64,000 nt of DNA, from positions 806,001-870,000 of the forward strand of contig CANLQE010000001.1 of NCBI GenBank assembly GCA_947493215.1, in the 5' to 3' direction. The position numbers were made by a program, and so were the translations under genes. This DNA is from an uncultured Sphingomonadaceae bacterium. GTDB taxonomy: Bacteria > Pseudomonadota > Alphaproteobacteria > Sphingomonadales > Sphingomonadaceae. The notes below the pieces were generated by a model. It saw nothing but the letters and a program-made list of their open reading frames with translations. It ran no database searches and was not told the DNA's origin. Positions 19,323-32,505 of the stretch are shown piece by piece; position 1 is the stretch's first letter; each line of letters opens with the position of its first letter.

Positions 19323-21272
19323 ATGGGAAAGTCAGGGGTAGACCAAGACACACCGAATGATTCGGCGAATATTTTCGTGAGCTATTCACGGGATGATCGG
19401 GCTAAAGTCTTGCCTATCATTGAGGCGCTTGAAAAAGCCGGCCTTACCGTGTGGTGGGACGGTTTGTTGGAAGCGGGTACGCTATTCTTACATACAACCG
19501 AACAAGCACTGGAAGAGGCCGATGTTGTACTCGTTGTCTGGACCAGCACTTCTGTCCAGTCCAACTGGGTGCGCGATGAGGCAACAAGCGGAAGGGAAAC
19601 GGGGCGTTTGGTCCCAGTGACAATAGACGGTTCACTTCCACCTCTGGGGTTCAGGCAGTTTCAAGTAGCGGATTTGTCAGCATGGCGCAAAAATCCCGAT
19701 GCTCCGGAAATTCAAAATGTCATCCAGTCGATCCGGTCACTAATGGGCCAGCCATCACAGTCGCTCCCTCTTGTGACGCCGCTGCCTAAAAGACCGATGT
19801 TGACGCGACGTTCCGCATTGGTCGCTGGCGGGGCAACATTGGCAGCAGGGACGGTTGGGGCATGGGCAGCTGGCTGGATAGGAAGCGAAACAGCAGCAGC
19901 AGCCAGCAGCATAGCCGTTCTGCCCTTCAACAATATTAGCGGAGATACTTCCCAAGACTATTTTGCCGCTGGTTTGTCAGAAGAGCTGAGATCTACGTTG
20001 AGTTTGAACCAACAGCTGCAAGTTGCTGCGAAAACCTCTTCAAACAGTTTTCAGGGCAAGCAATTTGATACCAAAGCCATTGCCCAGAAATTGAGCGTAT
20101 CTCATATTCTCGATGGCAGCGTCAGGCGATCGGGAGATGTCATAAGGGTCTCCACCCAGCTTATTGATGGCACTACCGGTTTTGAAATATGGTCCGAAAG
20201 CTTCGATCGCAAGATGATCGATATTTTTGCAATTCAAGATGAAATCGCAACAACGGTCGCCGATGCGCTGGTCGCCACAATATCGTCATCAACTACAATA
20301 TCAGGGCAAAGCATAGGCGGAACGCTAAATTCAAACGCCTATGATAGCTACCTGAAGGGCAAAGCGTTTTACGGCTTGGCAGCAGATGAAAAAACATATC
20401 GCAATGCCTTGGCGCAGTTCAATGAAGCAATCGAATTGGATTCCAATTATGCTGCAGCCTATGCCGCAAAATCCCGGACGCTGACCGTAATTGCAAACAG
20501 ACTGACGACCGGGGACGGACATATGGTGCTCTATGACGCGGCTGTCACGGCAGCGCGCCAGGCGCTTAAAATTGCACCTTCTTTGGCTGACGCACATGCC
20601 GCATTAGGCTTCGTTTTATTGAATGGACGTTTGGACATAAGGGCGGCAGGGTCTCCTTTCAGAAAAAGCTACGAATTGGGCTTTGGCAATGCCGACATAT
20701 TGTCGACCTATGCCGTCTTTGCGGGCCGTACCGGAAAGTTCGAAGAAGCGCGCCGCGCTGCATCCCGCGCTCTAAAACTCGACCCCCTAAACCCGGTAAC
20801 TTTTCGAAATGCCGGAATTGTCGAATTTGCTGCCCGCGATTTTGATGGAGCGGTATCACTGCTAAATCGTGCTCTGTCTATTAATCCAGAGGTAATCGGA
20901 ATAAACTCGATATTGGGTGATATTGCCATCGTTAGCAATCAACTTGAGGAAGCGCGAAGCTTCTTTCGATTGGAACCCAGTCAGCTTCTTCAACAAAGGG
21001 GTTTGGCTATCGTTGAGTGGAAATTGAACAACGTCGAGGAGGCCAAGAACATATTGGATGGGATGATCACATCAATGGGCGATAATTGTTTGTTCCAGCA
21101 AGCAGAAGTTCAAGCACAATGGGGCAATAATGACAAAGCCTTCCAAATATTGTTGCATGCGTATGAGAAAAGAGATTCCGGACTTGTTCTTTTGCGCAAC
21201 AACCCTCTATTTGATCCCCTAAGAAATGACCCGCGTTTCAAAGACTTGCAGTTGAAACTGGGATTTGAGTGA
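19323..21272 (+). CDS. TIR domain - TM - TolB-like domain - TPR protein
   Basis: N-terminal TIR: IFVSYSRDDRAKVLPIIEALEKAGLTVWWDGLLEAG...VVLVVWTSTSVQSNWVRDEATSG. Then a RRSALVAGGATLAAGTVGAWAAGW hydrophobic segment, a TolB-like domain SIAVLPFNNISGDTSQDYFAAGLSEELRSTLS...HILDGSVRRSGDVIRVSTQLID, and C-terminal TPRs. ATG at 19323 preferred to the track start 19269. Confidence 0.88.
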   Translation: MGKSGVDQDTPNDSANIFVSYSRDDRAKVLPIIEALEKAGLTVWWDGLLEAGTLFLHTTEQALEEADVVLVVWTSTSVQSNWVRDEATSGRETGRLVPVTIDGSLPPLGFRQFQVADLSAWRKNPDAPEIQNVIQSIRSLMGQPSQSLPLVTPLPKRPMLTRRSALVAGGATLAAGTVGAWAAGWIGSETAAAASSIAVLPFNNISGDTSQDYFAAGLSEELRSTLSLNQQLQVAAKTSSNSFQGKQFDTKAIAQKLSVSHILDGSVRRSGDVIRVSTQLIDGTTGFEIWSESFDRKMIDIFAIQDEIATTVADALVATISSSTTISGQSIGGTLNSNAYDSYLKGKAFYGLAADEKTYRNALAQFNEAIELDSNYAAAYAAKSRTLTVIANRLTTGDGHMVLYDAAVTAARQALKIAPSLADAHAALGFVLLNGRLDIRAAGSPFRKSYELGFGNADILSTYAVFAGRTGKFEEARRAASRALKLDPLNPVTFRNAGIVEFAARDFDGAVSLLNRALSINPEVIGINSILGDIAIVSNQLEEARSFFRLEPSQLLQQRGLAIVEWKLNNVEEAKNILDGMITSMGDNCLFQQAEVQAQWGNNDKAFQILLHAYEKRDSGLVLLRNNPLFDPLRNDPRFKDLQLKLGFE

Positions 21273-21293
21273 GCAAGAAAACAGGAGAATGAA

Positions 21294-21530
21294 ATGCGTA
21301 AAATACTATTGGCCGCCACAACTGTTCTACTTTCATCGAGTTTGACAGCTTGCGGCGCACCAGAGGAAACTGCAGCCGAAGGCACCGAAGCTGTTGAAGA
21401 AACCGCCCCGGTTGAAGAAGCCATGTCGGCGGAAGAATCCACTGATGAAACCTCTCAGGAAGCAGAAGCCGATGGCACACCAGAAGAAGACGGTGATGAC
21501 GAAGACAGAGGGAATCCCATCGATTCATAG
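21294..21530 (+). CDS. Small acidic lipoprotein, hypothetical
   Basis: 78 aa; lipobox SLTAC then Glu/Asp/Thr-rich tail; 21 bp after the TIR gene stop. Confidence 0.75.
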   Translation: MRKILLAATTVLLSSSLTACGAPEETAAEGTEAVEETAPVEEAMSAEESTDETSQEAEADGTPEEDGDDEDRGNPIDS

Positions 21531-21566
21531 CACCGATTATACCAATTAGCTGCCGCGCCTGGGAAC

Positions 21567-22547
21567 TCACCTTCCTCTGGCGCGGCTTGCCATCGTCGTG
21601 TCAATCCAATTTCGATAGTGGGCCACTTTGGCGTAAACGCCCGGTCTCCCAGGCTGAGCACAACCATCACCCCAGCTGACAACGCCCAATAGCTTGTTGC
21701 GGAAAACCAATGGACCGCCGCTGTCGCCTTGGCATGTGTCGGTTGACGGGCCATTGGCGCAAATGACAGATGAATTTATTCGGCCTGGATAATGGCTATA
21801 GGCCTGCTGACAGGCACCCATATTCCACACATCAACCGATGCCCACAAGAGGATTGCAGAGCTACCGCCATTTCTGGTTTTCCCATAGCCAAAAATATTG
21901 GCGCTACCGTTCGCCCCCGCCTGATTGGAACCAATTAGCGAGATCGGTCTTACACCATTTCGATAAGCAGGTTCGATCTGCAACAATGCGATGTCATTGG
22001 CTTTGGTTCTGCTATCATAATATTTGTGCGGGATTTTTTTTAGCACCCGGTAAAAACGACCCGATCTATCGGACAATTTAGTAGAGCCCAAACGGACCGT
22101 CATCGTATAATTGCGATATTTTCCCGCGATGCAATGGGCTGCCGTCAATATCCATTCACGGGCGATCAGTGTTCCACCGCAGCGATGCCGCTTCGCCCAA
22201 TCCCCCTGCTCAACCGGCAGCTTAGACGTGCGCTGATACTTATACGCCCAGATTGACGCCTGCCACGGGGCCATTTGCTGCGAAGCCGGGGCATTATGAA
22301 CCGAATGAACATATGAGCAGTCATTTTCGTCTCTACATGGGTCCTCAATCCTGCCATCTTCGTCATAAAGGCTGGTCGCGAGGTTGTTAATCGGTTCTTC
22401 GTCCGGTTCGTCGAACTTCGGCCAGCTATAATCCCGGCCCGCCGCGCAGCTGGAAAGCAAGGCAAGGCCCATCAACGATATCCCGGATTTCATGCTGATC
22501 TTGGGAATGGTTGATTTGCTCGCATCTTTTCCAACTTTCATTCCCAA
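21567..22547 (-). CDS. Trypsin-like (S1) serine protease, predicted lipoprotein
   Basis: Lipobox LLSSC; catalytic motifs LTAAHC, NDIALLQI, DTCQGDSGGPLV, VVSWGDGCAQPGRPGVYAKV. Confidence 0.92.
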   Translation of the reverse strand: MGMKVGKDASKSTIPKISMKSGISLMGLALLSSCAAGRDYSWPKFDEPDEEPINNLATSLYDEDGRIEDPCRDENDCSYVHSVHNAPASQQMAPWQASIWAYKYQRTSKLPVEQGDWAKRHRCGGTLIAREWILTAAHCIAGKYRNYTMTVRLGSTKLSDRSGRFYRVLKKIPHKYYDSRTKANDIALLQIEPAYRNGVRPISLIGSNQAGANGSANIFGYGKTRNGGSSAILLWASVDVWNMGACQQAYSHYPGRINSSVICANGPSTDTCQGDSGGPLVFRNKLLGVVSWGDGCAQPGRPGVYAKVAHYRNWIDTTMASRARGR

Positions 22548-22586
22548 GCTTATAATTGACCGCCATATTTGGACAGCGGAAAGCCC

Positions 22587-24110
22587 CTATAGTGTCGGTT
22601 TTCCGTATATCGAAAAGCTCGCCCACATTTTTGGATCGTTCAAATATGGCTGGCGCCCATAATTATTTTTATAATTCATAGTCTCAATTTGAGCCTGCTG
22701 CATAGCAATCTCGGGTGCGAGACCGGTCTTTAGCCCGTTGACAAAGCTGGTCATCAATATCGCCGTCGCATTGTCGCTCACATTCCAAAGGCTGGCCACC
22801 ACTTGACCTGCACCAGCAGACGTCCATGTTCTGGCCACGCCAAAACCGCCACCATCGAGAACTCGCCCCAGTGCAGTCTGACAGGCGCTCATGATCACCA
22901 ATGGATGGTGATTGTCCCAGCCATTGAAACGCTCCTGCCGAACATGGCCTGCATAATAATGTCCGCCGGACATCGCCATAAACCCTTGCGTAAGTGGATT
23001 GTCCGGATCTGCGACAGCATGGGTTGCCATATAGATTATTCCGGCGTCCGGGTTTTTGTTTATGGCCCTAACGAAATTGCGGCGGGTTGCTTCATCGCCC
23101 AGCAACAGGCGCGTTGATCGGTCAGACAATTGTTTCGAAACCGCTATTGCTTCGCGACGTGCACCTGGCAGCGGCGACCAGTCGAATTTGGGATCGCTCG
23201 ATAGATCTGGATCACCAACGATGACCGCTTTATCGATGTTCAATTTAGCAAAATCAAAAAAGCTGTTTTTGTTTGTCAACGTGCCGATATCCGGCAGGAT
23301 GACAAACGACCAGTTTTTTGCTGCGAACCCGTTTTCAAGCGGCAATGCCGCATAGGGTGCGGTGCCGGTATCGCGCGCTGCGATTACCAGCAAACGTCCA
23401 GAACGTGTGCCTAGCGCCTTCCCCACTTCACCCGGCAGCAATGCTTCTGCTGTTTTTGACAGGGTCTGTTTGCGTTCTGCGACAGCGGCAGGCGACCGGT
23501 CTCTTTTCCTTGCCGCCCGCATCGCCTCTTTTGACACAGGTGGCTGACCTTCTGGTCTTGGACCTCGAGATACCGCCAAACGCCGGACCCCAAGGCCTTC
23601 GGCCATGGCGCCCAAGCCTTCATAACTTCTGTTGTAAAACCCCGTGACGATGCCACCATCGGGAGCAATCAGCCAACTCTGCAGAAAGTCATCATTTTTT
23701 ATGCTGTGAATCAAAGCGTAAGTCGGCGTGCCGCCTTTGGACAAGACAGCCAGTTTTTCCTTTATCTCTTGAAGATCGCTTTCGGCCTTAGCCAAATTGC
23801 GCTTCTGACCGGGAGCCACAACTCGGCCTGTTTCCTCCTTGGTTCGCATCACCTCTTTAAAAAGTTCTGCTCCTGCAATGGCACCGAGCAGGTCTTCATA
23901 TTTTTTCCCCCGAAAGTCTTTGGGCATCGGCGTCGGATTGGGTGTGGGCACGTTGGATGCAGCTGACGGCTCGTTGGATGCGACTGATGGTTCTGCATAA
24001 AATCCCTGTTTACCGGCCGCATCAGGGTCTGCTTGTCCGCAGGATGCAAGAAAATATAGGAGGAAGGGAGCAATAAAACCGCCGTTGAAGCTCATTCGAA
24101 AACTGATCAT
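22587..24110 (-). CDS. CHAT domain protein, predicted lipoprotein
   Basis: N-terminal FLASC lipobox; C-terminal CHAT motifs IIYMATHAVADPDNPL (His) and LVIMSACQTALGRVLDGGG (Cys) plus VVASLWNVSDNATAILMTSFV. Confidence 0.9.
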   Translation of the reverse strand: MISFRMSFNGGFIAPFLLYFLASCGQADPDAAGKQGFYAEPSVASNEPSAASNVPTPNPTPMPKDFRGKKYEDLLGAIAGAELFKEVMRTKEETGRVVAPGQKRNLAKAESDLQEIKEKLAVLSKGGTPTYALIHSIKNDDFLQSWLIAPDGGIVTGFYNRSYEGLGAMAEGLGVRRLAVSRGPRPEGQPPVSKEAMRAARKRDRSPAAVAERKQTLSKTAEALLPGEVGKALGTRSGRLLVIAARDTGTAPYAALPLENGFAAKNWSFVILPDIGTLTNKNSFFDFAKLNIDKAVIVGDPDLSSDPKFDWSPLPGARREAIAVSKQLSDRSTRLLLGDEATRRNFVRAINKNPDAGIIYMATHAVADPDNPLTQGFMAMSGGHYYAGHVRQERFNGWDNHHPLVIMSACQTALGRVLDGGGFGVARTWTSAGAGQVVASLWNVSDNATAILMTSFVNGLKTGLAPEIAMQQAQIETMNYKNNYGRQPYLNDPKMWASFSIYGKPTL

Positions 24111-24242
24111 GGCTGATCTCCCCGGACGAGATAGTATAGGCGACCTACAATTTGTAAAGAAATGTCTCAGACTGTTGATCAGCTATTCTTCAACGGTCAG
24201 GGTCTAGTCGCGCTGCCGGTCCAATATAGCCGGTAGTCACGT

Positions 24243-26243
24243 CTATACAGGCACGGTGATTTGCTTGCCGCCAAATACAGCCTGCCAGTTTTCGATTTCG
24301 GAAACCACAACATCATCCGTGGCATGGACCAATGCAGTGACCTTTCCATAGTCGATTGCGGTGTCGGGAGCAGCCAAAAGCAGGTTGATGCGATGGTGGA
24401 TTGCATCAAGCTTTTTCGCGGTCACTTCGGAAATCGCTGCAAATCGTTCAAAATCACCGAAATAGCGGATGCCCGCAATCCCAGCACCGAATGTCGGGAA
24501 CATGACTCCAAGAACAGTGAAGGTCTTGGACAGAGAACCGACTATTGCATAGTCAATAAGATCAAGTTCTGCACATCCTTTTAGCAACAGATAAGACGCG
24601 ACAGACAGCACCGCGAGGCCAAACAAAAGTTCCGAAAATCGGTCCAGATTATGGTGCACGGCCTTTAGCCGTTTTGCTTTGCCAAAATGATAGTCGCGCT
24701 GGGGTGTAACGTGGGAGTTTATCAGCGCGGTCAAGCTCAGCCTCAGATAAGCGGACGTCAATTTTACCTGCGGCAGACCGATGCTGCGCAATGCTTGCCG
24801 AACATACCATTCAGGCCAGGAGGTTTCCGTTCCTTGTGGCCATCTCCCTCGTGCACGGGCCACGCCCAGCATCAAAAGAAGTGGCCCATGCCGGAAATAT
24901 TCGGCGACGCGCCGCGTCTCAAACCAGCGGCCATGCCAGCGATTTTTTTGCCCGCGAATTGTTATGATAACAATGGCCAGGAGCAACAGAAATTCAAATA
25001 GCGCGAATATCCATTTTTGCTCTGGTGACACCAGCGGAAGATATAATATCCCGCCCACAATCGCGAAAGCAGAGAGAATAAAATTGACGATCATGCCGCC
25101 GCGATAATGATCGGACAGCCGTGCTGCGATGCCGTCTGCCCACGCAAAATTCTGCATCGCAACCGCATCAATTTGTTTTGCAAGCTTAAGATCTGCATTG
25201 GGCAGGTTTTGCGCCACTTTCAATAGTGCAGCACCGCTTCCATTAGCAACATCTTCAGGACGCTCATAGGCTTGAATCAGGCTCCGGAAAGGCTTCTTGG
25301 TGTTGCCAAATAAAGCTTCTATCCTGCGATACCCATGTGTTAGTCGTGCGCTGCGATCATGCCATTTTTCATCGATAAATGCTGATATCCCCGGTTGAGT
25401 AGCCGAGGCCTTGGACAGTTTTGCGTGGTCGGGGCAAATAATGTCAGCTATTATTGACGCAATTTCCAGATTACGATCTTCATGCTCGCCACCGACCTTT
25501 GAACCAGCGAGCGATTCCGGCGCATATAGAATGCTCCATTTGTCCGGGCTTGCCGGGTCAATCCAGATGACCGGAGCCCCCATTTCCAATGCACAGGCCA
25601 CGGTATGCCCGGTTCCGCCATTATTGGAGGTGCTTTTGCCATCCCACACCGCGATGATGAGATCGGATTGTTCAATCATGACACGCCCGGCCAGCATTGC
25701 GCGCTGTGCGCTTTCTACAGCAAAGGCCTGCGCTTTGGCGAAGTCATCGGGTGAATCGAGCTTATCAAGATACAGCGCTGTAATATGTTCATCCTGATCA
25801 GCCAGTTCAAACAAAAGCGCACTATCCGCTATTACATTAATGGCGTCTACCCGAGCGCGCGTAGCTTCGTCACTAGCCTTCTTGTTCCCAAGCAATGCTC
25901 TTGCATCCTCGGCATCCAAGGGCAGTGCATTGATCGCCAGATTGAGTTGCCGACCAAATGGTAAGGGGCTGACCAACTCCCATTTGCGAGCCAAGGCCAG
26001 TTCTGCCGCTGCCTGATCCGTACCATCGACCAGCAAAGTATTGAGCCGCATGGATGCTTGTGAGCCATCTTTAAATTCTGATGGGGTATTTTGCGCCGTT
26101 CGATCAATGGTTTCGAAAATGGCATCTATCGCCGCTTTTATAGCGCCAGTGTTCCTCGCATAATCGGCATGGGCAGCACGATGCCCAGTTACCCCAATAC
26201 TGACATGCACCGTTGGCGGCTGGGGTGGTTTGACGATGCTCAC
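24243..26243 (-). CDS. SLOG-like N-terminal domain fused to a four-TM region with SLATT-like C-terminus
   Basis: 666 aa; IGVTGHR, DGTDQAAAELALARKWELVSPLPF, DLIIAVWDGKSTSNNGGTGHTVACALEMGAPVIWIDP (SLOG/Rossmann-like), two TM pairs, C-term GIRYFGDFERFAAISEVTAKKLDAIHHRI...VVVSEIENWQAVF. Confidence 0.75.
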   Translation of the reverse strand: MSIVKPPQPPTVHVSIGVTGHRAAHADYARNTGAIKAAIDAIFETIDRTAQNTPSEFKDGSQASMRLNTLLVDGTDQAAAELALARKWELVSPLPFGRQLNLAINALPLDAEDARALLGNKKASDEATRARVDAINVIADSALLFELADQDEHITALYLDKLDSPDDFAKAQAFAVESAQRAMLAGRVMIEQSDLIIAVWDGKSTSNNGGTGHTVACALEMGAPVIWIDPASPDKWSILYAPESLAGSKVGGEHEDRNLEIASIIADIICPDHAKLSKASATQPGISAFIDEKWHDRSARLTHGYRRIEALFGNTKKPFRSLIQAYERPEDVANGSGAALLKVAQNLPNADLKLAKQIDAVAMQNFAWADGIAARLSDHYRGGMIVNFILSAFAIVGGILYLPLVSPEQKWIFALFEFLLLLAIVIITIRGQKNRWHGRWFETRRVAEYFRHGPLLLMLGVARARGRWPQGTETSWPEWYVRQALRSIGLPQVKLTSAYLRLSLTALINSHVTPQRDYHFGKAKRLKAVHHNLDRFSELLFGLAVLSVASYLLLKGCAELDLIDYAIVGSLSKTFTVLGVMFPTFGAGIAGIRYFGDFERFAAISEVTAKKLDAIHHRINLLLAAPDTAIDYGKVTALVHATDDVVVSEIENWQAVFGGKQITVPV

Positions 26244-26300
26244 AGGAGGCCCTCTTCGCCGGCAATCCCTATTCGAATTGGACGAAAGGCGTCTGCGAAA

Positions 26301-26738
26301 TCAATCACGCCCCGGTGTCCAAATTCTTTCCATTGTGAGATAGGTAAACGAAGCGCTCCAGGCAATCAGCAACAGGCCGGTTAGAGCCTCAATCCCTGCT
26401 ACCACGCGTATCGGCCCTTCAGGCGTAATATCGCCAATACCCAAAGTCGTATAAGAGGCGATAGAGAAATAGAAAAAATCTGCTGCGGTCGAAGTATGCG
26501 CGCCGGACAGGCTTCCGATTCCATTAAATTCCATCGTCCAGAATGCGATTGCGAACAAGATGATTTCGGTGACATGAGTCAGAAAAATTATCGTCATTAC
26601 CAGCAGCATCGGTCTGCGGATTCTATGCTCGAGCTTCGCAATGAGAATAGTGCCGTTTCGTAATACCTGAAAATGGAGATAAAGGCATAGTGCTACCAGC
26701 AAGCAAGATACGACAGCAGCGGCAAGCAATTCGGTCAT
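26301..26738 (-). CDS. Ion-channel (Ion_trans_2/K+ channel-like) small membrane protein
   Basis: 145 aa; hydrophobic helices around pore-like SIASYTTLGIGDITPEGP (TLGIGD vs canonical TVGYGD). Confidence 0.8.
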   Translation of the reverse strand: MTELLAAAVVSCLLVALCLYLHFQVLRNGTILIAKLEHRIRRPMLLVMTIIFLTHVTEIILFAIAFWTMEFNGIGSLSGAHTSTAADFFYFSIASYTTLGIGDITPEGPIRVVAGIEALTGLLLIAWSASFTYLTMERIWTPGRD

Positions 26739-26847: not shown

Positions 26848-27303
26848 ATGCGGGGTTGGATCCGCTCATTCGATCTATAGCGACGATCAGCAACAAAGCA
26901 CAGGGGCAGCCAAAGACGGAAAAAGCGAAGTATCATAGCAATCTGGATATTCATTCTGTTTACGCTAGCGACATTTGTTTGGAATTTGGTGTCCCTCTTT
27001 ACCGAAACAATGATCAATTTAGATTTGATTTTTCTCCCGCTCGTTGCGTTACTGCATTTAACCTCAATCGTATTGCTAATCTTGCACTCAACACGGCAAT
27101 GTTTGGCAAAAGAGCTATATTGCCCAGGCCCTGACCGACGAGCCAAAGCACCGTTTGATTTGCGAACATCAAAGTGTTACCCGCTCATCGCGATGGCTTA
27201 TGCATGTCAGCATGCGGAGATGCCACCACAGATAAGCCCGCTGGCGAGGACGCGGCGGCGACTGAAGCGGCAGCTACCGAAGAGTGCACACAGGAAGCCA
27301 TGA
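26848..27303 (+). pseudogene. Possible interrupted small membrane protein (in-frame TAG at 26878-26880)
   Basis: Frame from ATG 26848: MRGWIRSFDL*RRSATKHRGSQRRKKRSIIAIWIFILFTLATFVWNLVSLFTETMINLDLIFLPLVALLHLTSIVLLILHS; two TM-like segments but no ATG between the stop and the first TM. Confidence 0.35.
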
Positions 27304-27488
27304 TGGCTAAGGCACAAGAGATTGGCGAGAAAATGCAAGGATTAGCTAGTGATCCAGAAGCAATGCAGGAAATGGCTTCCAAGATGCAAGAGGTTCAAGC
27401 AAAGGTTCAGCAAGGTGCTGCGGATGGGAGTTTCGATATAGCTGAAGCATGTGCCGTCTATGATGACATGCTCGCTGCGGCTGAATAA
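27174..27488 (+). CDS. Small acidic lipoprotein-like protein; signal peptide appears frame-disrupted
   Basis: GTG-start frame MLPAHRDGLCMSACGDATTDKPAGED...ECTQEAMMAKAQEIGEKMQGLASDPEAMQEMASKMQEVQAKVQQGAADGSFDIAEACAVYDDMLAAAE; body protein-like, N-terminus not a normal signal peptide. Confidence 0.6.
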   Translation: MLPAHRDGLCMSACGDATTDKPAGEDAAATEAAATEECTQEAMMAKAQEIGEKMQGLASDPEAMQEMASKMQEVQAKVQQGAADGSFDIAEACAVYDDMLAAAE

Positions 27489-27903: not shown

Positions 27904-30900
27904 TCAGAATTCAAAGCGGACCCGTATGTTACCCGAGTGAGATTGGTAATCAGAGGCGAAACGGCCCTGATATTCAGCTCCGATGCTGAACCCGTCTTTG
28001 TTGACAAGGTTCAGTCCGGCACCAAGATCAAAACGGGATTCAGAAGGTTCTGCTGAAGTTAGACGGAATGTGTCGGCCCCGGAATTGAAGCTTCCGTTTA
28101 CGCCCAGGCCATCACCGATAAAGTCATATACATAAGTCGCGCTAGCATAAGGCACGATGGACAGGTCTTTACTGTCATCTACCTTGCCGGCGAAACGCAG
28201 ACCCAATGTACCTTCGAGGAAGTCTGTACGCTCCGTATCCAGAGTTAAGCCCAAACCACCGGTCTCGGTCAAGGCATCCTGAGACAGGCTGGCATAGCGC
28301 AATCCGGCATGCGGTGTGATCGAGAATGATCCAGTTTCGAGCGTATAGCCACCGTTAACAGCGGCGATAACACCATCCACATCAGTTTCGCCGGAGATCA
28401 GGCCGGTAACACCGTTACGGCGACTATCAACGTCACTGAATGAATATCCCAGTTCGGCATTCACAAAAGCTGCGCCAAGATCCAAACCAGCATAACCAGA
28501 TATCTGATAACTGTTTATGTCGCTTTCTGCGCCAACCGGACCATCTGAATCCACGTCGATATCAGAATAGTTGAGCAACAGACCAACAGTCAGCTTTTCG
28601 TTCAGTTTGGTGTCGAGTCCAAGGGTGAAGCCCAAGGCATCGCCATCATATCCAACAGCAGATTGACTTTGCGCATCCCGGTCAGAAGTCCGGAAAAATG
28701 CCTGGCCCCATAATCCGGTTGCATCACCATCCAATCGGCGGGAGAGCAAGGAACTTGAGAAACGCTGGGTTTCAAAGATTTCCCGAGTCACACCATCGTT
28801 GATAGCGGGCAACAAGCTGAGCGCCGATGCTTCAAATGCGGCGAGATCAGCCGAACTGTTCAGGCTGTTTGCTACGTCGCCAGCCAAACGATTGTTGGAC
28901 AATGCCGATGTCAGTGCGCCACCAAATGAAGAAATATTGGCATCAGCACTCACCGCGGACAGATCAACAGCAGTTGGCGTTACAGTCACCGAACCCAGTT
29001 GCACTGTGTAATCAAGCAGGAAGTCATCATCCGTCACATTCACGGTTAAACCATTATCTGTGAATGTACCTGTTTCCGACACCAAGCTTATCGGCGCACC
29101 AATGGTAAGATTTGCAATGTCCGTTGGTGTTTCAATGTTGATCACGCTGTCCGCACCAAAGCTGCTGTCGCCGGCAATCGCCAAGCTATCATTGCCAAGT
29201 TCAAATGCCAGCGTGCCATTGGAGGTAAAGTCACCATCAACGGCCCGCGCGCCTGATATTGCCAGTTCGGCTCCGGCATCGACAATAACATCGACACCGC
29301 CTTGCACATCACCAGCCAAAGTCGACGAACCGCTGGCAAAAGCCAGACTGTCGGCAAAAGCAGAGCCGATAAAATTGCCATTAAGTGCGCCGCCATTTTG
29401 AACGAATGTCAATCCGCCCAAAGCTGTCGATGCGTCAACCGCGCTTGCGCCAGACAAGGTTCCGCTGTTGGTGAAAGTACCCGTGAAATTGACATTTTCG
29501 ATCAACAGAGCCGGAGCCGTTTCGGAAGTAATGGAACCGCTATTATCAATGTCGCCATTGACCGTAACGCTGGTCCCAGCACCAGCACCATTGAACAAAC
29601 GCAGACCGGCAGTCGCGCCAGATGCCAAGGCATCACCGCGACCGTTAATCGTGCCCGCATTGGTCAACGAAATGTTTCTCACGTCGCCATCAGCGTTGCC
29701 GAGTTGCAGAGATACACCAGACCCCTGATTACCGGTTCCCGCGTCAATGGTGCCGCTGGCAAGGTTGTTCAGGGTGAAGTTATTGGCAGTGCTATCGGCA
29801 TAGACTGTGCCATTACGCTGGTTACCGGTTCCGAGAATGGAGCCAGAGTTGTTCACAACCAGACCCGTGCCATCAATGTTCAGCGCGCGGCTGCCTGATG
29901 AGATGGTGCCTGCGTTGTTCACAACAGCGCCGGTAAAGTCACCACCACCTGCTGGTGTTGCGTTACCGAAGTACAGACCGTTTTGAACACCAGAGATGGT
30001 TCCGCCAGCTTCGTTGGTGATCGTTCCGTTGAAGCTCACACCGTTAACAAAACGGATACCGGCGGTTGTGCCGCTATTGCCTTCGCTGTCGATGGTTCCG
30101 CTGTTGGTAATGTTGCCTGTGAACAGACCAACACTGCTTCCGTCCAAAACCCCGGCATTGCGAGCGCGTTCGAAGCGCACGCCGTCACCAGCAGTGGTCA
30201 GACCAGCACCAGCAGTACCGCGACCTTGAATGGTCCCTGTGTTGTTAATGTCAAAGGCATTACCAGCAGCTGAAAGCTCGGTTGAGAAACCTGCACCTTG
30301 AAGTCCAGCACCAGCATCAATGATGCCATCGTTGTTCAGGACGAAATCCTGCGCAGTGCTATCAGCATAGACCGTACCATTACGCTGGTTGCCGGTTCCG
30401 AGAATAGAACCGGTGTTATTCACAAAAAGGCCTGAACCGTCAATATTCAGCGCCCGGCTGCCTGATGAGATCGTACCAGCATTATTTACAACAGCGCCAG
30501 TGAAATCACCGCCACCGGCTGGGGTTGCGTTACCGAAATACAGGCCATTTTGAACGCCAGAGATAGTTCCATCCGCTTCGTTGGTAATTGTTCCATTGAA
30601 GCTGACACCATTAACGAAACGGATACCAGCAGCGGTACCATTGGCTGCTTCACTGTCGATTGTCCCGCTGTTGGTGATGGTGCCCGTGAACAGACCAGTG
30701 GTGGTTCCATCTAGCGCACCAGCAACACGCTCTCGTTCAAAGCGTACGCCATCACCAGCGGTGGTTAGGCCCGCAGCGGCGTTTCCGCGGCCCTGAATCG
30801 TGCCAGTGTTGTTAATGTCAAAAGTATTGCCCTCCGCTGAAAGCTCGGTTGAGAAACCTGCGCCTTCCAGTCCAGTTCCGGCATCAATGATACCACCATT

Positions 30901-32505
30901 GTTAAGAACAAAGTCTTGAGCAGTGCTGTCGGCATAGACTGTGCCATTACGTTGGTTACCGGTTCCGAGAATAGAACCCGTATTGTTCACAACCAGGCCA
31001 GTGCCATCAATGTTCAGCGCGCGGCTGCCTGATGAGATTGTGCCTGCGTTATTGACGACAGCGCCGGTAAAGTCTCCGCCGCCCGCTGGGGTTGCGTTGC
31101 CGAAATACAGACCGTTTTGAACACCGGAGATCGTGCCACTAGCTTGGTTATCGATGGTGCCAGAGAATGAAACACCGTTTACAAAACGGATGCCAGCGGT
31201 TGTGCCGCTATCCCCTTCACTGTCAATGGTTCCGCTGTTGGTGATGTTACCCGTAAACAAACCAGTGGTCGTGCCATCTAGAGCGCCAGCAACACGTTCA
31301 CGTTCGAACCGTACGCCGTCACCAGCTGTGGTCAGACCGGCACCAGCAGTGCCGCGACCTTGAATAGTTCCGGTGTTGTTGATGTCAAATGCGTTACCCT
31401 CAGCAGCCAGTTCAACAGAGAAGCCAGCGCCTTCATTGCCAGCGCCAGCATCGATGATGCCGGCGTTGTTCAGGGTAAAGTCTTGCGCAGTGCCATCGGC
31501 ATATACCGTCCCATTGCGTTGGTTTGCGGTGCCAATAATTTCACCGTCAGCAAGGTTGTTTACAACCAGGCCACTGCCATCAATGTTCAGCGCGCGACCG
31601 TCCGATGAAATCGTACCCGAGTTGTTGACAATGCCGCCGGTGTGATCGGCATCATTACCAAAATAGAGGCCGTTATTTGCACCAGAAATAGTACCGCTAT
31701 TGTCCAATGTACCTTGGAATCCGATACGGTTGGCAAAGCGGACGCCGGCGACAGGGCCTTGATTCGATTCAGAAGCAATGCTGCCGCTATTTGTGATGTC
31801 GCCGCTATATATATATTCAGGGGCCAATCCTGGACCAAAAAAGCGCAGTCCGTCGCCAGCTGTTCCGCCGGTAGGGGCGGCTTGGCCGCGGCCTTGAACG
31901 GTGCCGTCGTTGACAATCGCACCGCCACGCGGTGCGCCACCGCCGCCGACTTCAATCGCGATACCAGCGCCTTCCACGCCAGCATCGATGAGGCCGGTTG
32001 CACTATTGTTGATATTGATATTGTTCGATGTACGGTTGCCGTATACTGCGCCATTGCGCTGACTGTCGGTGCCGCGAATAATACCGTCATTGTTCAATGT
32101 CGCATCGGTACCATCAAAATTCACGACCCGCGAATCGGCTTCCAAAATGCCGGTGGCGCTGTTGTTGATCGTTGCCCCGGTTGTGCCTTGGTTCACCTGG
32201 ATTGTTTGGGTTACACCAGTGGTGCGTAACGTGCCGTCATTGCTGACGGTCACATCATTATTGCCGACAACAACTACCGGCGCGCCGATGACGGTGCTTG
32301 TAACACCAATGCCGGCGGTAATCGTTTCACCGTCTGCGCCGCTGGTCACGGTCATGTTATCGCCGTCGTTAATGATCTGCTGCGCGTGAGCCGGCACTGC
32401 GGCCATGGCAATAATCAAAGCAGCCGCAGATGCCGAATAGCGCAGGGATATGGATCGGGACGCGGAACGGTTAAATATTCCGGTTTGGTTGGAATCGGGG
32501 GTCAT
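27904..32505 (-). CDS. Autotransporter with repetitive passenger domain and C-terminal beta-barrel
   Basis: 1533 aa; signal peptide SASAAALIIAMAAVPAHAQQ; repeated NNTGTI.../NSGTI beta-helix-like units; C-term autotransporter barrel ...HSGNIRVRFEF. Confidence 0.93.
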   Translation of the reverse strand: MTPDSNQTGIFNRSASRSISLRYSASAAALIIAMAAVPAHAQQIINDGDNMTVTSGADGETITAGIGVTSTVIGAPVVVVGNNDVTVSNDGTLRTTGVTQTIQVNQGTTGATINNSATGILEADSRVVNFDGTDATLNNDGIIRGTDSQRNGAVYGNRTSNNININNSATGLIDAGVEGAGIAIEVGGGGAPRGGAIVNDGTVQGRGQAAPTGGTAGDGLRFFGPGLAPEYIYSGDITNSGSIASESNQGPVAGVRFANRIGFQGTLDNSGTISGANNGLYFGNDADHTGGIVNNSGTISSDGRALNIDGSGLVVNNLADGEIIGTANQRNGTVYADGTAQDFTLNNAGIIDAGAGNEGAGFSVELAAEGNAFDINNTGTIQGRGTAGAGLTTAGDGVRFERERVAGALDGTTTGLFTGNITNSGTIDSEGDSGTTAGIRFVNGVSFSGTIDNQASGTISGVQNGLYFGNATPAGGGDFTGAVVNNAGTISSGSRALNIDGTGLVVNNTGSILGTGNQRNGTVYADSTAQDFVLNNGGIIDAGTGLEGAGFSTELSAEGNTFDINNTGTIQGRGNAAAGLTTAGDGVRFERERVAGALDGTTTGLFTGTITNSGTIDSEAANGTAAGIRFVNGVSFNGTITNEADGTISGVQNGLYFGNATPAGGGDFTGAVVNNAGTISSGSRALNIDGSGLFVNNTGSILGTGNQRNGTVYADSTAQDFVLNNDGIIDAGAGLQGAGFSTELSAAGNAFDINNTGTIQGRGTAGAGLTTAGDGVRFERARNAGVLDGSSVGLFTGNITNSGTIDSEGNSGTTAGIRFVNGVSFNGTITNEAGGTISGVQNGLYFGNATPAGGGDFTGAVVNNAGTISSGSRALNIDGTGLVVNNSGSILGTGNQRNGTVYADSTANNFTLNNLASGTIDAGTGNQGSGVSLQLGNADGDVRNISLTNAGTINGRGDALASGATAGLRLFNGAGAGTSVTVNGDIDNSGSITSETAPALLIENVNFTGTFTNSGTLSGASAVDASTALGGLTFVQNGGALNGNFIGSAFADSLAFASGSSTLAGDVQGGVDVIVDAGAELAISGARAVDGDFTSNGTLAFELGNDSLAIAGDSSFGADSVINIETPTDIANLTIGAPISLVSETGTFTDNGLTVNVTDDDFLLDYTVQLGSVTVTPTAVDLSAVSADANISSFGGALTSALSNNRLAGDVANSLNSSADLAAFEASALSLLPAINDGVTREIFETQRFSSSLLSRRLDGDATGLWGQAFFRTSDRDAQSQSAVGYDGDALGFTLGLDTKLNEKLTVGLLLNYSDIDVDSDGPVGAESDINSYQISGYAGLDLGAAFVNAELGYSFSDVDSRRNGVTGLISGETDVDGVIAAVNGGYTLETGSFSITPHAGLRYASLSQDALTETGGLGLTLDTERTDFLEGTLGLRFAGKVDDSKDLSIVPYASATYVYDFIGDGLGVNGSFNSGADTFRLTSAEPSESRFDLGAGLNLVNKDGFSIGAEYQGRFASDYQSHSGNIRVRFEF
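29888..31594. repeat. Long in-frame tandem repeats in autotransporter (567 bp period)
   Basis: The anchor cggctgcctgatgagat recurs at 29888, 30455 and 31022 (exactly 567 bp = 189 codons each); a diverged anchor lies at 31595 (573 bp). Confidence 0.9.

What the first reader, a model, noticed from the sequence alone, without database searches (positions are those of the whole stretch)
19323..26738. Candidate envelope-spanning conflict/stress system: TIR-TolB-TPR + lipoprotein + trypsin + CHAT + SLOG/SLATT-like + K+-channel-like
Seen: four minus-strand genes lie in order channel -> SLOG/4TM -> CHAT -> trypsin with short gaps (57, 132 and 39 bp). A convergent plus-strand TIR-TM-TolB-like-TPR gene and an acidic lipoprotein gene sit 36 bp beyond. 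Known: TIR, SLOG, SLATT-type 2TM modules, CHAT proteases and trypsin-like peptidases recur together in nucleotide-centred bacterial conflict systems. Inference: a signal through the SLOG or TIR module is relayed to pore or protease effectors. I do not recognise this exact combination as a named defence system.
Basis: partly seen in the sequence, partly recalled or inferred. Interest (0 to 1): 0.85.

Follow-up and report, generated by a model that had tools for sequence, protein, structure and literature searches.

The report
Protease-matched lipoprotein beside a TIR receptor
A patchily inherited gene cluster of sphingomonad bacteria pairs a predicted membrane-spanning TIR immune-type receptor with a tiny lipoprotein whose tail has evolved in step with the cutting preference of a neighbouring trypsin, which suggests a bacterial pathway of protease, small ligand and TIR receptor that resembles insect Toll signalling.

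Summary
The six genes are real at the stated places. TIR, trypsin, CHAT and channel pass profile searches; the SLOG/SLATT protein passes only by structure (B. subtilis YpsA) and weak SLATT/DUF4231 hits. Co-occurrence is conserved: of 120 TIR loci, 107 have a small protein directly downstream, 84 a trypsin and 69 the SLOG protein within 9 kb; the channel (16) and CHAT (6) are optional. The stretch is absent from a same-genus genome. It matches no named defence system tested here.

New observation: the small lipoprotein's tail motif tracks specificity residue 189 of the neighbouring trypsin: Asp189 with Arg/Lys (window DDEDR|GNPIDS, the only basic residue of the mature protein), Phe189 with TDQG repeats, Gln/Thr189 with T/S/N-GNPI. 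The association survives phylogenetic simulation (p 0.0001-0.0009 for Arg, two trees). So the lipoprotein is most likely the protease's cognate substrate (or inhibitor). The TIR protein has a CadC-like, probably periplasmic sensor half and an invariant catalytic Glu; SLOG is the probable nucleotide receiver. I propose protease -> lipoprotein -> TIR receptor -> NAD-derived signal -> SLOG/SLATT membrane effector. The pairing is well supported; direction, signal and trigger are inferred.

The parts
19323..21272 (+). TIR receptor gene: N-terminal TIR (catalytic Glu codon 19578-19580), SRRxxL twin-arginine + weak TM segment, CadC/TolB-like domain, TPR superhelix (longer ORF from GTG 19269)
   Evidence: TIR_2 6.6e-21 and TPRs; E104 and R180/R181 of the 667-aa frame invariant in 47 homologues; model m845ccb0c7546 pLDDT 86, fold matches TPR superhelices and CadC periplasmic domain 3ly9
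21294..21530 (+). small acidic lipoprotein (78 aa, lipobox LTAC-G); proposed protease substrate/ligand
   Evidence: small gene directly downstream of TIR in 107 of 120 loci, median gap 33 bp; 79 of 95 distinct ones have a lipobox, none with Asp at +2; no Pfam or NCBIfam family above cut-off
21495..21527 (+). predicted cleavage motif DDEDR|GNPIDS; Arg codon 21507-21509 is the only Arg/Lys of the mature protein
   Evidence: sequence; residue before the GN core co-varies with trypsin residue 189
21567..22547 (-). trypsin-like lipoprotein peptidase (triad intact, Asp189 = Arg/Lys specificity); true start may be the ATG near 22493
   Evidence: Trypsin 3.2e-53; H57/D102/S195 and D189 by alignment
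22587..24110 (-). CHAT peptidase with lipoprotein signal (His in MATHA, Cys in SACQTA); optional second protease
   Evidence: CHAT 3.8e-42; same subfamily beside TIR/SLOG in L134, L135, L142, L151, L162 and on a Novosphingobium megaplasmid at 65% identity
24243..26243 (-). SLOG domain (about residues 13-240) fused to a SLATT-like all-helical membrane part (long helices 352-434 and 497-624)
   Evidence: model pLDDT 90, pTM 0.88; YpsA fold match prob 1.00; weak DUF4231/SLATT profiles; full-length orthologues at 44-55% in 26 other genomes of 301
26301..26738 (-). small K+-channel-like pore protein, filter TTLGIGD
   Evidence: Ion_trans_2 1e-10; KirBac3.1 8.8e-8; beside SLOG also in divergent loci L062, L063, L065, L067

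Best explanation
A transmembrane TIR signalling system with a proteolytic input. A lipoprotein facing the periplasm carries one or several copies of a motif [D/E]-X-G/T/S; X fits the S1 pocket of the partner trypsin, which cuts there (in the window DDEDR|GNPIDS). Cutting, or failure to cut, changes what the CadC-like/TPR sensor half of the TIR protein binds. The cytoplasmic TIR domain then turns NAD+ into a nucleotide signal, which the SLOG domain of the SLATT-type membrane protein receives; that protein, with the small K+ channel where present, alters membrane permeability. CHAT (here) or caspases (elsewhere) act as additional or alternative proteases. Shown here: gene set, recurrent linkage, intact catalytic residues, fold assignments, covariation of trypsin residue 189 with the lipoprotein tail. 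Inferred: cleavage itself, periplasmic topology, TIR as receiver, TIR-to-SLOG nucleotide, membrane outcome, biological trigger.
For: Covariation: Asp189 with a cleavable Arg/Lys in the last 30 residues in 33 of 36 loci versus 11 of 43 for other residues (Fisher 1.4e-9; 1.2e-6 after 85% and 3.9e-4 after 60% dereplication). Phylogenetic simulation p 0.0004-0.0006; Arg alone over the whole mature protein p 0.0003/0.0009 on TIR and trypsin trees; Arg is the residue most correlated with Asp189 (0.74, next Asp 0.47), Gln with Phe189 (0.77); Arg content of TIR segments, of the trypsin and of the lipoprotein's own first 25 residues does not track it (-0.10 to 0.25). The same GNPI/V core is preceded by R (window, L151: D189), H (L038: G189) or T/S/N (Q189, T189). 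Small gene adjacent to TIR in 107/120. Some TIR loci without a nearby trypsin have caspase and CHAT genes (L117, L174) or CHAT (L116, L134, L135), and the small proteins of L117, L174, L134 and L135 have Arg motifs. TIR-SLOG co-occurrence 34/36 genomes. Invariant TIR Glu. SLOG fold. Precedents: Thoeris TIR-to-SLOG and TIR-SLATT pairs (PMC11204291, PMC9503650).
Against: The Q189, T189 and F189 classes are each about one clade, so independent shifts are few. Exceptions: D189 in L049 and L205 without a cleavable basic residue; G/A/S189 in L057, L131, L143 keep Arg. 16 of 95 distinct small proteins have no lipobox; for L119, L175, L182, L195 the neighbouring trypsin looks secreted, so locations would not match. 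SLOG is not within 9 kb in 51 of 120 loci (some contigs are short). No experiment; trigger unknown. The window trypsin lacks a canonical IVGG activation end.
Confidence: 0.5

Rival explanations
1. The lipoprotein is an inhibitor or pseudo-substrate that keeps the protease off (antidote to its own protease), and the protease is the effector unleashed by TIR/SLOG signalling.
For: The same covariation would arise for an inhibitor; protease and lipoprotein genes are usually convergent neighbours (55 of 71 immediate neighbours), as separately regulated pairs can be.
Against: Short, acidic repeat tails with up to nine tandem motifs look like substrates rather than rigid canonical inhibitor loops (inference); the lipoprotein gene follows the TIR gene, not the protease.
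Confidence: 0.2
2. Envelope-integrity sensor: an outer-membrane lipoprotein tethers to the CadC-like TIR receptor and signals when the envelope is breached or a foreign protease arrives (stress or predator response rather than phage defence).
For: Lipobox +2 residues are never Asp (0 of 79), which predicts outer-membrane sorting by the E. coli rule; the CadC periplasmic fold is a stress sensor; no SLOG match in 50,697 phage records.
Against: Patchy, island-like distribution, presence on a megaplasmid and caspase/CHAT/nSTAND1 partners are typical of conflict systems; the two readings differ in trigger, not in parts.
Confidence: 0.25
3. Lineage co-inheritance only: a loose island of conflict genes; lipoprotein motif and trypsin pocket change independently and match because of shared ancestry.
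For: Three of the residue-189 classes are single clades; island absent in a same-genus genome.
Against: Simulations on two trees reject independence (p 0.0001-0.0009 for Arg); the effect is strongest for Arg with Asp189, as the pocket predicts; other protein segments show none.
Confidence: 0.1
4. The small proteins are precursors of modified peptides (RiPP-like) that the protease matures, and the TIR/SLOG genes respond to the product.
For: Repeat cores; the TIR sensor half resembles the cyclase of a putative peptide-modification system (TIGR04510, 4.8e-7, far below cut-off); L049 has a radical-SAM-like CNLNCSYC gene near the TIR gene.
Against: Such a gene was noticed in only one lineage (L049/L160); loci were not searched systematically for maturation enzymes.
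Confidence: 0.06

Closest known systems
Thoeris (ThsB TIR -> cADPR isomer -> ThsA SLOG or TM effector)
   Same: TIR with catalytic Glu beside a SLOG protein with membrane helices; probable nucleotide relay (PMC11204291)
   Different: TIR here is fused to a CadC-like/TPR sensor half behind a twin-arginine/TM segment; SLOG fused to SLATT-like helices, no SIR2 or macro; adds lipoprotein and protease; PADLOC ThsB models only 9e-4 or worse
TIR-SLATT pairs of phages and NTP-dependent conflict systems (Aravind group)
   Same: TIR next to a 2TM SLATT protein predicted to be an ADPr-regulated permeability effector (PMC9503650, PMC7159879)
   Different: no lipoprotein matched to a trypsin is described in the passages read
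Trypsin/caspase-activated nucleases of Hachiman, AVAST, canu (Tuck et al. 2025, PMC12799240)
   Same: dedicated trypsin-like protease coevolving with one partner that it cuts at defined residues
   Different: partner there is an MBL-fold nuclease and the protease is fused to a defence enzyme; here the partner is a small lipoprotein and the protease is secreted
CadC-type one-component receptors
   Same: alpha/beta plus TPR-like sensor domain (3ly9 fold match) after a membrane segment
   Different: TIR replaces the DNA-binding output domain
Insect Toll pathway (serine protease -> Spaetzle -> TIR receptor)
   Same: works-like analogy only: protease, small ligand, TIR receptor across a membrane (own knowledge)
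   Different: no homology of ligand or sensor domain claimed
TRPM channels (SLOG-type module + ion channel, ADP-ribose gated)
   Same: SLOG-like module plus membrane part in one protein; weak fold matches
   Different: low TM-scores; different membrane domain

Membership tests
Thoeris | TIR protein with catalytic Glu | tested here: met
   E104 invariant in 47 homologues; activity itself untested
Thoeris | ThsA effector of SIR2-SLOG or TM-macro type | tested here: not met
   no SIR2 or macro match; SLOG + SLATT-like
Thoeris | ThsB family model match | tested here: not met
   ThsB models only 9e-4 to 0.02 over the TIR domain
SLOG superfamily | YpsA/DprA/LOG Rossmann-like fold | tested here: met
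   2nx2 prob 1.00, TM 0.62 on target; ShosA prob 1.00
SLATT | SLATT/DUF4231 profile above curated cut-off | tested here: inconclusive
   DUF4231 20.9 bits vs 24.7; SLATT_1 24.1 vs 41
Trypsin (S1) peptidase with Arg/Lys specificity | His57, Asp102, Ser195, Asp189 | tested here: met
CHAT peptidase | CHAT profile and His-Cys dyad | tested here: met
   3.8e-42; MATHA and SACQTA motifs in the sequence
K+ channel pore | Ion_trans_2 profile and TxGxGD-type filter | tested here: met
   1e-10; TTLG[IV]GD in the close channel homologues; selectivity untested
Nuclease-protease pairs (Hachiman/AVAST/canu) | gated MBL-fold nuclease next to the protease | tested here: not met
   no such gene among the six of the window cluster; related loci were checked with home-made profiles and a Pfam scan of selected proteins, not exhaustively
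Anti-phage defence system | reduces phage infection | not testable with these tools
   needs plaque assays

The most novel reading that the evidence does not exclude
Bacteria have a Toll-like pathway: a secreted serine protease (or CHAT/caspase) cuts a dedicated outer-membrane lipoprotein ligand, whose state is read by the periplasmic sensor of a transmembrane TIR receptor that makes a nucleotide to open a SLOG-gated membrane effector; protease and ligand diversify together as specificity-matched pairs.
Probability: 0.3. Interest if true: 0.95.

Novelty: new variant of a known kind. Interest (0 to 1): 0.78.

Why it matters
The best-studied bacterial TIR defence proteins act as cytoplasmic sensors (own knowledge). 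A transmembrane TIR receptor with a proteolytically tuned ligand would extend TIR signalling to the cell envelope, and the natural set of matched protease-lipoprotein pairs with different specificities (Arg/Lys, Gln, Thr/Ser/Asn) makes the idea directly testable by partner swaps. It also gives a function hypothesis for a class of small lipoproteins that no family library names.

Tried and rejected
tblastn with the window lipoprotein was useless (wrong start, and too divergent); small genes were found by position instead. CHAT as a fixed core member: rejected; its closest relative in G249 (54%) lies about 880 kb from that genome's TIR-SLOG locus, though the subfamily recurs in 6 of 120 loci and on a plasmid. 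A 1243-aa 'SLOG fusion' in L189 is a gene-calling artefact. The TIR-SLATT 304-aa fusion in L115 is in frame but may be the scar of a deletion, so it was not used as evidence. Profile search of the SLOG protein against PDB sequences found nothing. SLOG search in phages: none. Literature searches for the exact combination gave no description; only open-licence PMC papers are held. Reading the covariation as cleavage only in the last 30 residues could be cherry-picked, so other tail lengths, the whole protein, all 20 residues and control segments were tested.

Full report
Observation. The window (G000:C1:806001-870000, a 3.69 Mb genome) holds six genes at 19323-26738 as described: TIR and lipoprotein on plus; trypsin, CHAT, SLOG/SLATT and a K+-channel-like gene on minus. 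Profiles confirm TIR_2, TPR, Trypsin, CHAT and Ion_trans_2. The SLOG claim fails by sequence profile but holds by structure: model pLDDT 90, pTM 0.88, fold match to YpsA with probability 1.00, then ShosA and DprA; the C-terminal part is long membrane-type helices with sub-threshold SLATT/DUF4231 scores. The TIR protein model shows TIR 34-158, a low-confidence linker with an invariant twin arginine (SRRxxL) and a weakly hydrophobic stretch, an alpha/beta domain 214-335 and a TPR superhelix 355-664; the last two match the CadC periplasmic domain 3ly9. Periplasmic placement is inferred from this, from the lipoprotein signals of the neighbours and from the arginines before the segment (positive-inside or Tat-like); a simple hydropathy scan did not call the segment.

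Conservation. In 301 genomes of the order, full-length SLOG orthologues (44-55%) occur in 26 other genomes plus a truncated one, TIR orthologues over 400 bits in 36 genomes, G000 included. In 19.5 kb neighbourhoods most SLOG orthologues lie within a few kb of the TIR gene in several different orders and orientations, which argues for selection rather than frozen synteny. A named collection gave 80 further TIR loci, mostly Sphingomonadales but also Pseudoxanthomonas gei and a few MAGs labelled Phenylobacterium or Gammaproteobacteria. In the pooled 120 loci: small downstream gene 107, trypsin 84, SLOG 69, channel 16, CHAT 6 within 9 kb (the two collections overlap, so some genomes are counted twice; the covariation statistics were also run on dereplicated sets). 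In a same-genus genome (G259) the rplM-rpsI pair is followed directly by the counterpart of the window's 40-43 kb region, so the 17.7-39.9 kb stretch with this cluster is lineage-specific. A Novosphingobium megaplasmid carries lipoprotein-TIR-SLOG-CHAT contiguously, and Caballeronia plasmids have a distant DUF4231 gene; in pSBC2-4 a TIR gene follows it.

The lipoprotein and the trypsin. Listing the small genes beside the trypsin sequences showed a pattern that I then tested. Alignment of 97 trypsin domains: triad residues intact in 95; residue 189 is D 42, F 17, Q 12, K 8, T 8, G 3, S 2, E 2, A 1, R 1, gap 1. D189 goes with Arg/Lys near the lipoprotein's C-terminus (DERTGP, GDDRGSG, GDETRT, GGDDKT...), F189 with STDQG/SNDQG repeats or STDH, Q189 and T189 with T/S/N-(G)NPI. 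Test numbers: 33/36 versus 11/43, Fisher 1.4e-9; dereplicated at 85% TIR identity 1.2e-6, at 60% 3.9e-4, at 55% 0.08 with 18 loci left. Two-state simulations on a TIR tree and on a trypsin tree without the S1 loop give p 0.0004-0.0006 for the 30-residue tail and 0.005-0.007 for any basic residue in the whole mature protein; for Arg alone in the whole protein 0.0003/0.0009. The result does not hinge on tail length (8-30 residues alike, weaker beyond 40). Arg (0.74) is the residue most correlated with D189, Gln (0.77) with F189. Control segments show little. Caveat: the pattern was noticed on the first neighbourhoods and tested on a set that includes them; the 80 later loci were added without change of hypothesis but were not analysed alone.

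Modular proteases. Loci without a trypsin nearby can have CHAT (L134/L217, L135; L116 has a CHAT-OmpA protein), or, with a small protein that lacks a signal peptide, caspase-alpha/beta-hydrolase + CHAT + nSTAND1 (L117) or caspase + CHAT (L174). Others combine trypsin with secreted-type caspases (L122, L155, with a WD40-caspase in L155). The small proteins of L117, L174, L122, L155, L134 and L135 all have Arg motifs. This swap of proteases around a constant TIR + small protein pair supports a substrate role for the small protein. L116 has no small gene called directly downstream of TIR.

Mechanism. See best explanation. Shown: the gene set, its recurrence, intact catalytic residues, folds and covariation. 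Inferred: cleavage, topology, direction (protease acting on the TIR ligand rather than being the final effector), the TIR-SLOG nucleotide and the membrane outcome. TIR-SLOG coupling rests on Thoeris precedent (PMC11204291) and on genome co-occurrence 34/36 vs 31/265 (Fisher on counts made by hand).

Comparison and novelty. Not Thoeris (effector type not met), not a nuclease-protease pair (no MBL nuclease in the cluster), nothing named in PADLOC. The closest concept for the pairing is the HamA-fused protease, specific for certain isoleucines of its partner HamM (PMC12799240). I file it as a new variant of a known kind: TIR-SLOG signalling with a protease-matched lipoprotein.

Noticed in passing
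L119:10500-10661, and the small genes of L182, L195, L175: Small proteins begin M[VI][IVT]GG[KR]PV, like the activation N-terminus of trypsin, while the trypsins beside them lack that segment and read ...SALxxGAPWQ after a signal-like stretch. Could hint at activation in trans, or be coincidence.
   Followed up: partly
L115:5174-6088: One 304-aa ORF fuses the TIR + TM part to the C-terminal SLATT-like part of the SLOG protein in frame; either a minimal fused version or a deletion scar.
   Followed up: partly
L214:8992-18707 and L215:1-12089 (own genome): The genome's two other CHAT proteins (about 1020 aa) lie next to or near very large secreted-looking proteins (1370-2217 aa).
   Followed up: no
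L049:8261-10667: Cupin-like and radical-SAM-like (CNLNCSYC) genes close to the TIR gene in one Erythrobacter-type genome, recalling peptide modification clusters.
   Followed up: no
window 27204-27488 and 27904-32505: A second small acidic lipoprotein-like gene and a 1533-aa repeat autotransporter-like gene lie in the same lineage-specific stretch.
   Followed up: no
L117:8911-18258: Apparently cytosolic variant: TIR + GDRGNG-repeat small protein + nSTAND1 + CHAT + caspase-alpha/beta-hydrolase (DUF7379), worth its own study.
   Followed up: partly
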